64,000 nucleotides of DNA from Botrimarina mediterranea. GTDB lineage: Bacteria; Planctomycetota; Planctomycetia; Pirellulales; Lacipirellulaceae. Of this stretch, positions 1,242-64,000 are shown piece by piece. Each line of letters starts with the position of its first letter. Positions within the stretch are counted from its first letter, which is position 1. A model generated the notes under the pieces. That model had not been told where the DNA came from and searched no databases. It saw nothing but the letters and a program-made list of their open reading frames with translations. The translations under genes and the position numbers were made by a program. Location of the stretch: positions 1,149,363-1,213,362 of the forward strand of contig NZ_CP036349.1 of assembly GCF_007753265.1 (NCBI RefSeq), written 5' to 3'.

Positions 1242-1395
1242 GGATTCGCGCGGAGACGCGGAGACGCGGAGAGCCAACAGGCGACGGCGAGCCCACGACG
1301 TGAGTCGTCGGTGTTTTCCGGCGAGCCGGGAGCGTCAGCGACCGGAGGACGCCAGGTACCCGCTTCGCTCCGGTCGCTGACGCTCCCGGCTCGCC
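1242..1395. repeat. Composite of palindromic repeats between S1 gene and sulfatase
   Basis: Three repeat types lie side by side. At 1247-1273 is a half-copy of the GCGGAGACGCGGAGA family, complete at 46205-46417. At 1285-1312 is a half-copy of the GAGCC..ACGACGTGAGTCGTCGG family, complete at 22015-22104. At 1320-1395 is a full hairpin whose arms start GGCGAGCCGGGAGCGTCAGC and end in the complement, GGCTCGCC. The last family recurs at about 2799, 3039 and 14538. Confidence 0.8.
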
Positions 1396-2798: not shown

Positions 2799-2862
2799 GG
2801 CGAGCCGGGAGCGTGAGCGACCGGAGGGAAGTTGGTACCCGGCATCCTCGGGCCGCTCACGA
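2799..2862. repeat. Partial copy of GAGCCGGGAGCG palindromic family
   Basis: Starts GGCGAGCCGGGAGCGTGAGC just after the sulfatase stop and continues CGACCGGAGGG, then degenerates; the opposing arm is only weakly present (GGCCGCTCACG). Confidence 0.6.
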
Positions 2863-3038: not shown

Positions 3039-3200
3039 CCGGAGTTGGACCCGTGTACCCGCGTCACTCCGGTCGCTGACGCTCCCGGCTCGCCAGTTGC
3101 TCCTTCGCGCCTTGGCGGCTTTGCGTGATTCCTCCAACCACTTGCGTGGCCGGCTCGCCGTTTCCTCCGGGTCTCTGTGTGAGACATTCCGGCGATTCCG
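3039..3200. repeat. Repeat cluster upstream of lipoprotein gene
   Basis: 3039-3096 is a copy of the CCGGTCGCTGACGCTCCCGG hairpin family with a shortened left arm (GACCGGAG). At 3104-3200 follow half-copies of the CGCGCCTTGGCGGCTTTGCG and GGGTCTCTGTGTGAGAC types, the same order as at 17513-17620. With the entries at 2799 and 2924 this fills the 505-base gap after the sulfatase. I see no gene here. Confidence 0.6.
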
Positions 3201-11217: not shown

Positions 11218-11286
11218 CTCAGCCGCGGGCGGCAGCCCACGGAGCCCCTGCGCAGGGTTCTCCGTGGGCTGCCGCCCGCGGCTGAG
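11218..11286. repeat. Hairpin, CTCAGCCGCGGGCGGCAGCC type
   Basis: Nearly perfect palindrome of about 30-bp arms (CTCAGCCGCGGGCGGCAGCC and its complement) around CCTGCGCAGG. Related copies: 60642-60714 (complete, degenerate) and half-copies near 15853-15885 and 53213-53240. It lies between divergent genes. Confidence 0.88.
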
Positions 11287-13694: not shown

Positions 13695-14020
13695 AGACCC
13701 GCGTTTTTCCGCGGTTTCCTGCGACAACCCGCCGCACCGGGGGTCGATTTTATCGACTTTCCCGGATCGGCCCCTTTACAGCCCCCCCGGTCTTGCTAAC
13801 TTCAGCGCCCCGGACCGCAAGGTTGTTGTAATCGGCAATGTCGCCGTAGACACCCCAGTCGGTCTGGCGCCCCGCCGCGTTGGCGGCGGTGACCCTTACA
13901 TGCCCGAGGGGTTCACGCATCGGATTGCGTGACGCCGACGGCGGTCGTCAGCGGCGCTGTTGCAGTGTCCCCCCGGGACCGGCGCCAGGCGGCAAGACCC
14001 GATGCTGGGAGAAACCAGAG
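13695..14020. other. Intergenic region upstream of Cys-rich gene, no gene seen
   Basis: 326 bases with no supported gene. TCGATTTTATCGA at about 13745 is a short AT-rich palindrome. The final GAGAAACCAGAG before the ATG is a weak ribosome-binding site. The length suggests a long 5' leader for the Cys-rich gene, but I cannot point to a promoter. Confidence 0.4.
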
Positions 14021-14410
14021 ATGAAGAACGTTTTCGCTTTCGCTGTTGCTATGGCCGTCGTCCTGTCGGCTGGCGTCCAGGCTGAGGCCGGTCTGTTCGG
14101 TGGCTGCCACAAGAACCGCGGCTGTGCCTCGGCTTGTGAGCCGACCTGCTGCGAGGCCGCTCCGGTCTGCTGCGAAGAGCCCGCCCCTTGCTGCGAGCCC
14201 GCTCCCGTTTGCGAGCCCGCCCCGGTCTGCGAAGAGCCGGCCCCTTGCGCCCCGGCTTGTGAGCCCGCTCCTTGCTGCGAGCCGGCCCCGACCTGCTGCG
14301 ACCCGTGCGACCCCTGCTGCAAGCCCAAGCGCTGCGGCTTCTTCGCTCGCATGAAGGCCAAGCACGCCGCCAAGCATTGCTGTGCCGCTCCGGCTCCTTG
14401 CTGCGGCTGA
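14021..14410 (+). CDS. Cysteine-rich exported protein
   Basis: 129 residues from ATG 14021. The signal peptide (MKNVFAFAVAMAVVLSAGVQ, cleaved after AEA) is followed by a mature part composed almost wholly of short repeats of type C-E-P-A-P-C/V-C, with about two dozen Cys, then a basic tail (CGFFARMKAKHAAKH). No catalytic residue is recognisable. Regular Cys pairs in an exported protein suggest a disulfide-crosslinked surface or envelope protein, or a metal-binding one. A second Cys-rich exported protein at 51940 has the same ending type and also its own strong terminator. The gene stands alone with a long leader and intrinsic terminator, as expected of a highly expressed single gene (inference). 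Confidence 0.85.
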   Translation: MKNVFAFAVAMAVVLSAGVQAEAGLFGGCHKNRGCASACEPTCCEAAPVCCEEPAPCCEPAPVCEPAPVCEEPAPCAPACEPAPCCEPAPTCCDPCDPCCKPKRCGFFARMKAKHAAKHCCAAPAPCCG

Positions 14411-14476
14411 GTCCTGCTTAGCAGGAACGTCGATTCAGCAATTCAGCTGACGCGACAACTCTGAGATTGCATCACG

Positions 14477-14518
14477 AAGAACCCGCCATCCTCAGCGAGG
14501 ATGGCGGGTTCTTTTTTT
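14477..14518 (+). terminator. Intrinsic terminator after Cys-rich gene
   Basis: Perfect GC-rich stem GAACCCGCCATCCTC / GAGGATGGCGGGTTC with loop AGC, followed by TTTTTTT. It lies 66 bases after the stop codon. Confidence 0.95.
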
Positions 14519-14537
14519 GCGCACGGGTCAGTGGTTA

Positions 14538-14900
14538 GGTGAGCCGGGAGTGTGAGCGACCGGAGTGAAGCGGGAGCACGGAAATTGAGTGTGTATCCGA
14601 CGCCCTCCGGTCGCTGACCAGGATTATGCAACGGCTAGCAGTACAAGGTTGGGCAGTAGAAGAAGCGTTAGCGCGTTGTGTCCCCCTGCTTCTTCAGAGG
14701 GAGGCCGCTTTCTCTGGTAAACGGGGGGAGGGTGCTGAAGCGAGTACCGGGCGCACCCCCTCCCCCCGTTTACCGGAATAAGCGGCCTCACCCGAAGGCG
14801 GTGGAGGGGGATCAAGGGCGCTAACGCTTCCTCGATTGAACTACCGAGCCCACTTCTCACTGCTAGCCCTTGCATAATCCTGTGACGCTCCCGGCTCGCC
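14538..14900. repeat. GAGCCGGGAGTG palindrome split by an inserted element
   Basis: The left arm starts at 14538 (GTGAGCCGGGAGTGTGAGCG) and runs to CGGTCGCTGAC; its continuation TGACGCTCCCGGCTCGCC resumes only at 14883. The 264 bases between are the foreign element annotated at 14619. The intact form is seen at 1320-1395. Confidence 0.88.
14619..14882. mobile_element. MITE-like foldback element with 23-bp inverted ends and TGAC duplication
   Basis: The ends are CAGGATTATGCAA... and ...TTGCATAATCCTG. The terminal inverted repeat is 23 bp with a single mismatch (23rd-base ends at CTAGCAG/CTGCTAG). The element is flanked by the direct repeat TGAC at 14615-14618 and 14883-14886, which is present once in intact copies of the host palindrome. 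The interior is a second long palindrome: GAAGCGTTAGCGC pairs with GCGCTAACGCTTCC, GAGGCCGCTT with AAGCGGCCTC, and GTAAACGGGGGGAGG with CCTCCCCCCGTTTAC. It has no coding capacity. Any transposase must act in trans from elsewhere. The interior resembles the repeat at 42824-43007. Confidence 0.88.
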
Positions 14901-14982
14901 TTTTTAGCGATGGCGTCTTGTGGCTTTGGCACCAACGCCGCTAGGCTCTGCCGGTTCCTTCCGCCCCATCCCGGCGCCGGCG

Positions 14983-15753
14983 ATGCAAGCTTTCGAGGTC
15001 CATCTCGACGCCTATCACGGGCCGCTCGACCTGCTGCTCTATCTCGTTAAGAAGGAAGAGCTGCCGGTCGCCGAGTTGCCGTTGGCAGTGGTGACGCAGC
15101 AGTACCTCGATTACGTAGCGGTGATCGAGCGGCTCGACCCCAATGCGGTAGGCGACTTTCTCGATGTCGCCAGCCTGCTCTTGGAGATCAAGTCGCGGAG
15201 CGTTCTTCCCTCCGCGGAGGAGGCGGCCGAGGGGCAGCCGCTCGACGACGAAGCGATCGAGTCCCCCGGCGACCTCGTGCAGCGGCTGCTAGAGTTCAAG
15301 GAGTACCGCGACGCGGCCGCGAAGCTCGAAACGCTGCGGCTCGACTGGTCGAGGCGCTACACCCGCACGGTCGCCCCGCCGCGGACGGAGGTGGACCCCG
15401 CCGAGCAGCCGATCGAAGGGGTCGAGCTCTGGGACCTCGTCAGCGCCTTTGCTCGGGTGATGCGCGACCGTCTCGCGCCGGCCAAGCTCCCTGAGACGAT
15501 CTACTACGACGAGACGCCGATCCACAAGCACATGGTGCGGATCGACGCTTTGCTGCGGGCGGCCGACGGGACGGTGCCGTTCGAGGACCTCTTCCCCGAG
15601 GGACCGGTCCATAAATCGACTCTCGTGGGTGTCTTCCTGGCGATGCTGGAGCTGATCCGCTACCGCCACGCCCTTGCCCATCAGCCGGAGCGCTACGGCG
15701 CCATCACGCTGGAAGCGGGGCCGGCGCCGCTGGACGTGTCTTTGATGTCTTAG
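14983..15753 (+). CDS. scpA: Segregation and condensation protein A
   Basis: 256 residues from ATG 14983 (MQAFEVHLDAYHGPLDLLLY); a GTG at 14920 would add a leader without homology to the family. The opening, with FEGPLDLLLxLI-type motif seen as YHGPLDLLLYLVKKEEL, is the ScpA/Rec8 kleisin N-terminus that contacts the SMC neck. The middle is acidic and variable. The C-terminal winged helix (FEDLFPEGPVHKSTLVGVFLAMLELIRY) binds the SMC head. It acts with SMC and ScpB in chromosome condensation; ScpB and SMC are not in the window. The gene begins just after the MITE-bearing repeat. Confidence 0.93.
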   Translation: MQAFEVHLDAYHGPLDLLLYLVKKEELPVAELPLAVVTQQYLDYVAVIERLDPNAVGDFLDVASLLLEIKSRSVLPSAEEAAEGQPLDDEAIESPGDLVQRLLEFKEYRDAAAKLETLRLDWSRRYTRTVAPPRTEVDPAEQPIEGVELWDLVSAFARVMRDRLAPAKLPETIYYDETPIHKHMVRIDALLRAADGTVPFEDLFPEGPVHKSTLVGVFLAMLELIRYRHALAHQPERYGAITLEAGPAPLDVSLMS

Positions 15754-52973: not shown

Positions 52974-53288
52974 TCGTCCCCAAAGTACGGAACCTCCCCC
53001 ATTGGGGTGGCGCCTTCGAGAAGGGCCCTAACGGACCATCTACGGCGTCGAAGAGGGGGGCCTTGGTAAACCTTTAGCGACCCCTCGAAAGGCCTCTACG
53101 ACCCCTCTACGAGCCTCTGAACGCACGTCCAGGTTCTCGGCGCCAAACACACAATCGGTACCCGACTGAGCCGGGGGGGCGCAGCCCTGGGAGTGAGATG
53201 GGCGCCCGGATTCCTCCGCGGGCTGTCGCCCACGGCTCCGATCAACCGCGGCGGCGTCGTCGCTACGGAGCGCCAACACCGGCGTGTG
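52974..53288. other. Intergenic, half-copy of a palindrome only
   Basis: 315 bases between the terminator and the FliN-type gene's stop. At about 53213-53240, CCGCGGGCTGTCGCCCACGG is a half-copy of the CAGCCGCGGGCGG family (11218). Three imperfect CCCCTCTACGA/ACCCCTCGAAAGGCCTCT units lie at about 53080-53115. No gene seen. Confidence 0.45.
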
Positions 53289-60641: not shown

Positions 60642-60714
60642 CTCAGCCGCGGGCGGAAGCCCCGGTGGAACCCTAGCGCCCGCTTCGCACCGAGGGCTAC
60701 CGCCCACGGCTGAG
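60642..60714. repeat. CTCAGCCGCGGGCGG hairpin family, copy 2 (degenerate)
   Basis: CTCAGCCGCGGGCGGAAGCC on the left and GGCTACCGCCCACGGCTGAG on the right; compare 11218-11286. Lies between two minus-strand genes. Confidence 0.82.
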
Positions 60715-63596: not shown

Positions 63597-64000
63597 ATGA
63601 TCATGCCCAGCGACGCCGTGGAGCTTCGCATCGATGGCCCCGTCGCCACGGTGCTGCTCAACCGGCCCGACTACGGCAACGCCCTAACGCGGGCCATGAT
63701 GTCCGAGCTGCGCCAGGCGCTCAGCGACCTGCATCTGGAAAAACGCGTCCGCGCGGTGATCCTCACCGGCGCTGGGGAGACGTTCTGCACCGGTCGCGAC
63801 CCCGCCGAGCTCGGCGATAGTGGCGACCTCATTGCCGACCTCGCTCGCTACGGCGAAGAGGCCGAGGAGTACCGCGACCTGCTCGTGGCGATGCTCGAGT
63901 TGCCCAAGCCGTTGATCGCCGCGGTGAATGGCCCCGCCGCTGCCGGCGGCGCGGGGCTGGTGCTCGGCTGCGACGCGGTGGTCGCTTCGGGCCAGGCGAC
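63597..64000 (+). CDS. Enoyl-CoA hydratase/isomerase family protein, 3' end missing
   Basis: 134 residues visible, starting ATG 63597 (MIMPSDAVELRIDGPVATVL); an ATG at 63603 is also possible. The crotonase fold shows ATVLLNRPDYGNALTRAM, then AVILTGAGETFCTGRDPAEL (oxyanion-hole strand), and NGPAAAGGAGLVLGCD (second oxyanion loop). The catalytic Glu positions of hydratase lie in the missing half. Family members hydrate or isomerise enoyl-CoA in fatty-acid or branched-chain breakdown; the specific substrate is not readable. The gene continues past the window. Confidence 0.88.
   Translation, partial: MIMPSDAVELRIDGPVATVLLNRPDYGNALTRAMMSELRQALSDLHLEKRVRAVILTGAGETFCTGRDPAELGDSGDLIADLARYGEEAEEYRDLLVAMLELPKPLIAAVNGPAAAGGAGLVLGCDAVVASGQA

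What the first reader, a model, noticed from the sequence alone, without database searches (positions are those of the whole stretch)
14538..14900. MITE-like element inserted into a palindromic repeat, with TIRs and a clean TSD
23-bp terminal inverted repeats with one mismatch flank 264 bp, and TGAC is duplicated exactly at the junction in a host palindrome whose intact form is seen at 1320-1395. The interior is itself a long foldback with no coding capacity. An intact empty-site reference in the same window makes this close to proof of insertion, and gives a way to identify the acting transposase.
Basis: seen in the sequence. Interest (0 to 1): 0.72.

Follow-up and report, generated by a model that had tools for sequence, protein, structure and literature searches.

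The report
Mini-transposon targeting the centres of palindromes
A short gene-less transposon sits exactly in the middle of a repeated DNA palindrome, and its probable helper transposase, found elsewhere in the same genome, belongs to a planctomycete group of insertion sequences that mostly land at palindrome centres, a habit known from a few other transposons but here kept over a whole group and its mini-elements.

Summary
A 264-bp element (14619-14882) with 24-bp ends (23 of 24 complementary) sits in a host repeat with TGAC duplicated; intact targets lie at 1326-1345 and 1370-1389. The genome holds 26 elements with this kind of end: twelve of its own class (itself, a 78-bp remnant and one with a nested IS included), nine 133-bp MITEs, and five copies of a 968-bp IS with a DDE transposase, four complete and identical, one with an assembly gap. 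So the MITE is real and its probable helper is found. A paralogous IS and relatives in other planctomycetes do the same at palindromes of other sequence: 6.57 of 10 arm positions pair over 58 elements, against 2.7 for background; 11 of 15 further loci agree. Insertion at the axis of REP palindromes is known for ISRm22 and ISPsy8 (PMC1525189). New here: an IS group not placed by NCBIfam, its MITEs, and one geometry kept while the palindrome changes. Movement is inferred, not shown.

The parts
14619..14882 (.). MITE-A copy, 264-bp foldback element with 24-bp terminal inverted repeats (starts CAGGATTATGCAA)
14619..14642 (+). left terminal inverted repeat
   Evidence: 96% complementary to 14859-14882
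14859..14882 (-). right terminal inverted repeat; its outer 22 bp are identical to the left end of the 968-bp IS
14615..14618 (.). target-site duplication TGAC, left copy (centre of the 20-bp target)
14883..14886 (.). target-site duplication TGAC, right copy
14607..14614 (+). left half-site of the target, CCGGTCGC
14887..14894 (-). right half-site of the target, GCTCCCGG
14538..14565 (.). left arm of the REP-like host hairpin, itself with one unoccupied, slightly degenerate 20-bp target
   Evidence: inverted repeats I5 and I6
14605..14900 (.). right arm of the host hairpin (14605-14618 and 14883-14900), split by the element
1326..1345 (+). intact 20-bp target, left arm of an intact host hairpin
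1370..1389 (-). intact 20-bp target, right arm of the same hairpin

Best explanation
The element is a non-autonomous foldback MITE that a transposase supplied in trans inserted at the two-fold axis of a REP-like quasi-palindrome. The likeliest helper is the 968-bp IS here called ISa (287-aa DDE transposase, Tn5-like fold). Proposed steps: the transposase pairs the two CAGGATTATGCAA ends of IS or MITE; the symmetric complex docks on a dyad-symmetric GC-rich target with half-sites like CCGNNNGC; it joins with a 4-bp stagger across the centre, so that the 4 central bases become the duplication. Relatives of the IS keep this geometry but use whichever hairpin repeat their host carries. Shown: copies, shared ends, duplications, palindrome-centred sites, absence from orthologous loci. 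Inferred: trans-mobilisation, cut-and-paste, and recognition of symmetric half-sites by a transposase dimer.
For: Own genome: 49 exact 13-bp ends, against 0 forward and 1 reverse matches of the reversed control at up to 1 mismatch. Four complete ISa copies 100% identical, nine MITE-B copies at 98.5% or more. MITE-B shares 22 of 22 terminal bases with one ISa end; MITE-A copies share up to 22 (output partly cut). Exact duplication in 17 of 26 ISa/MITE sites and 44 of 58 elements in all (counted). Both half-sites in 22 of 26, at least one in 25 of 26; the motif occurs 11 times in the 64-kb window. Axis test over 58 elements: 6.57 of 10 pairs at the axis, 2.2-3.5 when shifted 1-6 bases, 2.7 at 63,880 window positions. 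Loci found later: 11 of 15 have 5 or more of 8 pairs, against 4.4% of window positions. Polarity: 23 of 25 groups are C-rich on the left arm, against 43-53% of window hairpins at the four settings tried. Same-genus G001, G002 and G003 lack the end and the repeat core at the orthologous stretch (alignment of G001 and G003). Fold: Tn5 transposase Z 15.7 over 262 residues; piggyBac 11.3, first integrase row 9.9.
Against: No transposition was observed. The MITEs share only about 22 terminal bases with ISa and I saw no longer internal match, so another, lost helper is possible. 14 of 58 elements lack an exact duplication. Poor palindromes: L004, G075 and G412, and four of the 15 later loci (L202, L209, L213, L218), while L200 only just reaches the threshold. 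For several later loci I set boundary and loop length by eye after seeing the flanks. The 20-bp motif was read from the same sites it then scores. The G000 ISa/MITE group is one of the two groups without C-left polarity (mean -0.54). By Foldseek alone piggyBac and Metnase rank above Tn5.
Confidence: 0.82

Rival explanations
1. Structure-only targeting: the transposase recognises an extruded hairpin or cruciform, whatever its sequence, and joins at the loop.
For: Target arms differ in sequence between species while the axis is kept; ISb uses two different palindromes and the middle of a MITE-A foldback in one genome.
Against: CCGG-class targets of ISa/MITE are mostly mismatched at arm positions 3 and 4. 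The window has 615 positions with 6 or more of 8 paired and only 10 carry the motif, yet 22 of 26 insertions hit the motif. A perfect 17-bp hairpin at 14477-14513, in the same intergenic gap, was not used. Targets are C-left in 23 of 25 groups, background hairpins are not.
Confidence: 0.2
2. The element and the palindrome are one composite mobile repeat spread by a REP-associated (Y1) transposase or by copying of the whole unit, not a DDE transposition into a repeat.
For: At the orthologous place in G001, G002 and G003 both repeat core and element ends are missing; the genome has five Y1_Tnp matches.
Against: Repeats occur without elements (109 and 99 sites of two classes), elements occur in two repeat classes, mostly with exact 4-bp duplications, and an IS with the same ends carries a DDE transposase.
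Confidence: 0.06
3. MITE-A and MITE-B are derivatives of another, lost IS of this group; ISa only resembles it and does not move them.
For: No internal match to ISa beyond the ends seen; the G071 relative has both ends reading CAGGATTATGCAACTGC, closer to one MITE-B end than ISa's right end is.
Against: Up to 22 identical end bases, same duplication length, same target motif.
Confidence: 0.25

Closest known systems
ISRm22 of Sinorhizobium meliloti (IS4 family, REP-targeting; PMC1525189)
   Same: All copies in REP repeats, target consensus highly palindromic, insertion just at the palindromy axis, three of nine copies with imperfect duplications ascribed to recombination.
   Different: 6-bp duplication there, 4-5 bp here; the word MITE does not occur in that paper. 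I did not compare the two transposases; P0001 finds no match in 72,556 plasmid records.
ISPsy8 and IS1397/ISKpn1 (IS3 family) in REP repeats (PMC1525189)
   Same: Target is the symmetry axis of a REP hairpin (ISPsy8), or a REP (IS1397, ISKpn1).
   Different: IS3-family OrfA/OrfB transposases and a 3-bp duplication for ISPsy8; here a single PF01609 transposase with a Tn5-like fold.
Bacterial MITEs such as NEMIS and RUP
   Same: Short, non-coding, terminal inverted repeats, held to be moved in trans (passage).
   Different: The passages I saw do not put them at palindrome centres; here IS and MITEs share one palindromic target.
IS1111 copies in the GTAG palindrome of QMITE2, Coxiella burnetii (passage in PMC10969869)
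   Same: An IS that uses a palindrome inside a MITE as its target, like ISb within a MITE-A copy here.
   Different: There the IS enters a MITE; here the MITEs themselves also enter palindromes, with the same kind of ends as an IS.
GTAG-23 REPs of T. roseum inserted within small palindromes CCGSSCC(n3,4)GGSSCGG (passage in PMC3733652)
   Same: Short repeats placed inside GC-rich palindromes with a 3-4 base centre.
   Different: Those are REPs, a class its authors link to tyrosine transposases; here elements have terminal inverted repeats, 4-5 bp duplications and a DDE partner.

Membership tests
MITE (non-autonomous derivative moved in trans) | Short, no coding gene, terminal inverted repeats | tested here: met
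   264 bp, 24-bp arms, no gene inside
MITE (non-autonomous derivative moved in trans) | Multiple copies with target-site duplications | tested here: met
   21 MITE-type elements in the genome, exact duplication in 13 of 21 (counted)
MITE (non-autonomous derivative moved in trans) | Ends shared with an autonomous IS in the genome | tested here: met
   up to 22 identical terminal bases with ISa, whose transposase matches PF01609 at 2.1e-13
MITE (non-autonomous derivative moved in trans) | Movement by that transposase | not testable with these tools
   needs a transposition assay
REP-targeting IS (type 1 association of Tobes and Pareja) | Copies inserted at the same position of a repeated extragenic palindrome | tested here: met
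   both half-sites at the same position in ISa 5 of 5, MITE-B 8 of 9, MITE-A class 9 of 12; the authors ask for 100% of copies, which ISa meets and the MITEs do not
REP-targeting IS (type 1 association of Tobes and Pareja) | Targets lie between genes | not tested
   only the window's site was looked at; gene context of the other copies was not examined
IS4 family (Tn5/IS50 kind) | DDE domain PF01609 with RNase H-like fold | tested here: met
   Tn5 Z 15.7, rmsd 4.6, 262 aligned
IS4 family (Tn5/IS50 kind) | Y-x2-R-x3-E-x6-K signature (recalled) | tested here: not met
   R and E invariant over 11 relatives, Y not conserved, K absent in P0001 (my reading)
IS4, IS5, IS982 and IS1182 families as NCBIfam defines them | Score above the curated cut-off | tested here: not met
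   P0001: 40.1 bits against 270 (IS1182), 34.5 against 130 (IS982), 30.3 against 110 (IS5), 18.9 against 115 (IS4); the other ten members match the same families, but their bit scores were not shown
REP/RAYT system (host repeat) | Repeat mobilised by an adjacent Y1 transposase | not tested
   five Y1_Tnp matches in the genome; neighbourhoods not examined

The most novel reading that the evidence does not exclude
A phylum-wide group of DDE insertion sequences uses two-fold symmetry itself as its address: the transposase complex reads a short C-rich/G-rich inverted half-site pair and joins across its centre, and each lineage has re-adapted to the hairpin repeat that is abundant in its host, so that IS and MITEs can expand into repeats rather than genes. 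Target sequence then evolves while geometry stays fixed.
Probability: 0.4. Interest if true: 0.65.

Novelty: new variant of a known kind. Interest (0 to 1): 0.5.

Why it matters
Many transposases choose targets loosely. A group in which copies from many hosts mostly sit at the centre of palindromes of differing sequence gives natural material for asking how a DDE transposase reads its target and how that reading changes. It also explains part of the repeat landscape of a planctomycete genome: hairpin repeats, MITEs within them, and at one place an IS within such a MITE.

Tried and rejected
Single-protein scan of genome contigs with P0001 found nothing; the alignment did. P0001 against 72,556 plasmid records: no match. 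Profile A1 against PDB sequences: none at E up to 1. Rfam on 13800-15100: none. RNA function of the foldback: consensus folding over six copies gave a covariation term of +1.8, with 4 of 88 pairs changed on both sides, three of those four from one pair of segments differing between sub-classes; not supported.

A first automatic search for ends in loci took the palindromic flanks for terminal repeats and was discarded (9 loci with a duplication, mean 4.3 pairs of 10, 1 of 9 with 6 or more); it was replaced by an end-anchored search. 44 of the 64 loci went; 31 of those 44 went, leaving out L181 (no ends found, contig end near) and 12 Lacipirellula copies already taken. Of the 31: six are further Lacipirellula copies (exact 4-bp duplication in 4 of 6, pairs 5-8 of 10; not in the 58); L176, L177, L178, L179 and L201 repeat genomes; L204, L211, L214 and L216 gave no ends and L212 only an unconvincing pair. 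The other 15 went into. Boundary or loop length (4 or 5) was set by eye in L198, L199, L205, L217 and L218. The 12 Lacipirellula copies among the 58 are 12 of at least 18 in that genome.

Hybrid duplications were considered as evidence against transposition and put down to recombination: L023 and L086 have inverted copies, L019 nearly so, and L012 joins two inner halves; Tobes and Pareja give a like reading for ISRm22. Not proven here.

Literature searches for palindrome-centre or REP-inserted MITEs, or planctomycete REP-targeting IS: (two of them, 56 and 71, returned nothing). None of the listings shows this group, but subscription papers and ISfinder were not searchable.

Full report
What is there. 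Window 14619-14882 is a 264-bp element with 24-bp terminal inverted repeats (23 of 24 complementary) and TGAC on both sides. It splits the right arm of a hairpin repeat of a kind whose intact form stands at about 1320-1395. The whole element folds back on itself (DNA z -11.85, RNA z -13.58, 0 of 200 shuffles as good). Upstream is a Cys-rich ORF ending at 14410 (scanned as 13976-14410, no Pfam match; the ATG shared with relatives is at 14021). Downstream is ScpA (PF02616); the in-frame ATG shared with G001 and G003 is at 14983, so the element lies before the gene.

Copies. The window's genome (G000, one contig of 5.87 Mb) holds 49 exact copies of the 13-bp end CAGGATTATGCAA and three at one mismatch. 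48 of the exact ends, two of the one-mismatch ends and two ends at two mismatches (L004, L024) delimit 26 elements; the 49th exact end belongs to a partial IS copy behind an assembly gap and the third one-mismatch site to no element. The 26 are twelve of the window's class (MITE-A, the window's own, a 78-bp remnant and one carrying another IS included), nine copies of a 133-bp element (MITE-B), and five of a 968-bp IS (ISa). Seven full-length MITE-A copies are 73-87% identical to the window's, so old; MITE-B copies are 98.5-100% and the four complete ISa copies 100% identical, so recent. MITE-B shares 22 of 22 end bases with one ISa end and MITE-A copies up to 22; the parts of the output I saw show no longer internal match (cut).

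The helper. ISa encodes a 287-aa protein with PF01609 (2.1e-13); D103, D175 and E236 are invariant over 11 relatives, which I read as the DDE triad. No NCBIfam family reaches its cut-off for it. The AlphaFold2 model (pLDDT 83.3) aligns best with Tn5 transposase (Z 15.7, rmsd 4.6, 262 residues), then piggyBac (11.3) and integrases (from 9.9); Foldseek alone ranks piggyBac and Metnase above Tn5. A paralogue at 48-49% identity, ISb, is present in four copies with ends CAACGTTATGCAG, three of them with exact 5-bp duplications.

The target. In 22 of 26 ISa/MITE sites both flanks fit CCGNNNGC-N4-GCNNNCGG around the duplication, in 25 at least one does. Two repeat classes supply such sites: CCGGNNGC-N4-GCNNCCGG, 109 in the genome against 15 for the reversed pattern, and CCGNGGGC-N4-GCCCNCGG, 99 against 0. 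ISb sits twice at TTAGCCCCCGGT-CAATG-ACCGGGGGCTAA (one copy with one change), once at CCCCCTCCC-TCCAA-GGGAGGGGG, and one copy is nested in the middle of a MITE-A copy.

Relatives. Related transposases were found in 15 of 196 near genomes, G000 included, in 7 of 392 genomes drawn from the phylum at E 1e-20 or better, and at 64 loci of a collection of 84,980 species; 63 titles name lineages that I know as planctomycete and one an uncultured bacterium. Their elements keep the geometry with other sequences: G122 at CCCTCTCCC-5-GGGAGAGGG (6 of 6 with exact 5-bp duplications), G028 at CCCCC(C/T)GG-CGGA-GCCGGGGG-like sites (11 of 12 exact 4-bp), G547 (4 of 4) and G056 (2 of 2) at CC(C/G)-N2-GC-like half-sites. 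Over the 58 elements the arms pair at 6.57 of 10 positions when centred on the duplication, 2.2-3.5 when shifted by 1-6 bases, and 2.7 at 63,880 window positions. Fifteen loci found afterwards give 11 with 5 or more of 8 pairs, against 4.4% of window positions; L202, L209, L213 and L218 fall below, and G412 and G075 of the first set are poor too. Boundaries of some of the fifteen were set by eye, so this second set is not a blind test.

Sequence or structure. Pairing alone does not explain the choice: of 615 window positions with 6 or more of 8 pairs only 10 carry the ISa motif, and 23 of 25 target groups have C-rich left arms whereas window hairpins are split about evenly (for 6 or more of 8 pairs and loop 4: 43% and 43%). 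The G000 ISa/MITE group is one of the two exceptions. I favour reading of symmetric half-sites by a symmetric transposase complex, with hairpin recognition as the rival. The Tobes and Pareja paper states that Tn5 target sites are often palindromic (passage), which fits the fold match.

Empty sites. In same-genus G001 and G003 both neighbouring genes align, and the gap between them lacks the element and the hairpin repeat; the fetched stretches of G001, G002 and G003 hold neither the element's end nor the repeat core, and the 21-base end pattern has no match in these three genomes. That supports insertion, but shows the repeat is also a newcomer here. A 275-bp element in G031 (same family) sits at CCCCTCCCT-TGAA-AGGAGGGG, and G038 has the same end next to CCGGGCGCTGAC.

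Imperfect duplications. 44 of 58 elements have exact ones. L019, L023 and L073 keep the two outer halves of a host hairpin and L012 two inner halves. Recombination between copies or arms is the simple reading. Of ten MITE-A copies over 200 bp, L006 and L023 have the interior inverted relative to the outer ends, which points to exchange between inverted arms.

Against the literature. Tobes and Pareja 2006 (PMC1525189; parts 1 and 2 of 6 and passages read) describe REP association in the IS3, IS110, IS4, IS256 and IS5 families; ISRm22 (IS4) inserts at the palindromy axis with 6-bp repeats. So the kind is known. What I did not find is this planctomycete group, MITEs that share an axis-of-palindrome target, or one geometry kept over a group while the palindrome changes. 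PMC3733652 and PMC10969869 were seen in passages only.

Verdict. Real, in part recent, and explained in outline: a MITE of a palindrome-centred IS group. How the target is read is open and directly testable.

Noticed in passing
G000:C1:644137-645263 (L073): A three-layer nest: ISb inside the middle of a MITE-A copy inside a host hairpin repeat.
   Followed up: partly
L006 and L023 (G000:C1:3561212-3561460, 1844235-1844473): MITE-A copies whose interior is inverted relative to the outer ends, pointing to exchange between the foldback's arms.
   Followed up: partly
G000:C1:5206856-5207262 (L020): A second partial ISa end with the same flank after an N, probably an assembly artefact; the copy at 768091-769036 has an N run.
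   Followed up: no
G000:C1:304348, 291386, 1143952, 3843518, 5603686: Matches to the MITE-A interior without the element's ends: perhaps the source of the interior, or another hairpin repeat.
   Followed up: no
window 2805-2824 and 3069-3088: Two facing 20-bp target copies 264 bp apart where most neighbours are some 44-68 apart; the stretch between shows no element end.
   Followed up: partly
window 11223-11242, 11262-11281, 53216-53235, 60690-60709: Unoccupied targets of the second repeat class (CCGNGGGC type).
   Followed up: partly
G122, six IS copies (L111-L116): All six identical copies lack the first 24-26 transposase residues in frame; a different start, a frameshift or an inactive but once amplified copy.
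   Followed up: no
G000:C1:1556894-1557238 and four more places: Y1_Tnp (PF01797) matches in the same genome; possible source of the REP-like hairpins.
   Followed up: no
window 14021-14410: Cys-rich ORF without Pfam match, conserved upstream of scpA in same-genus G001 and G003.
   Followed up: no
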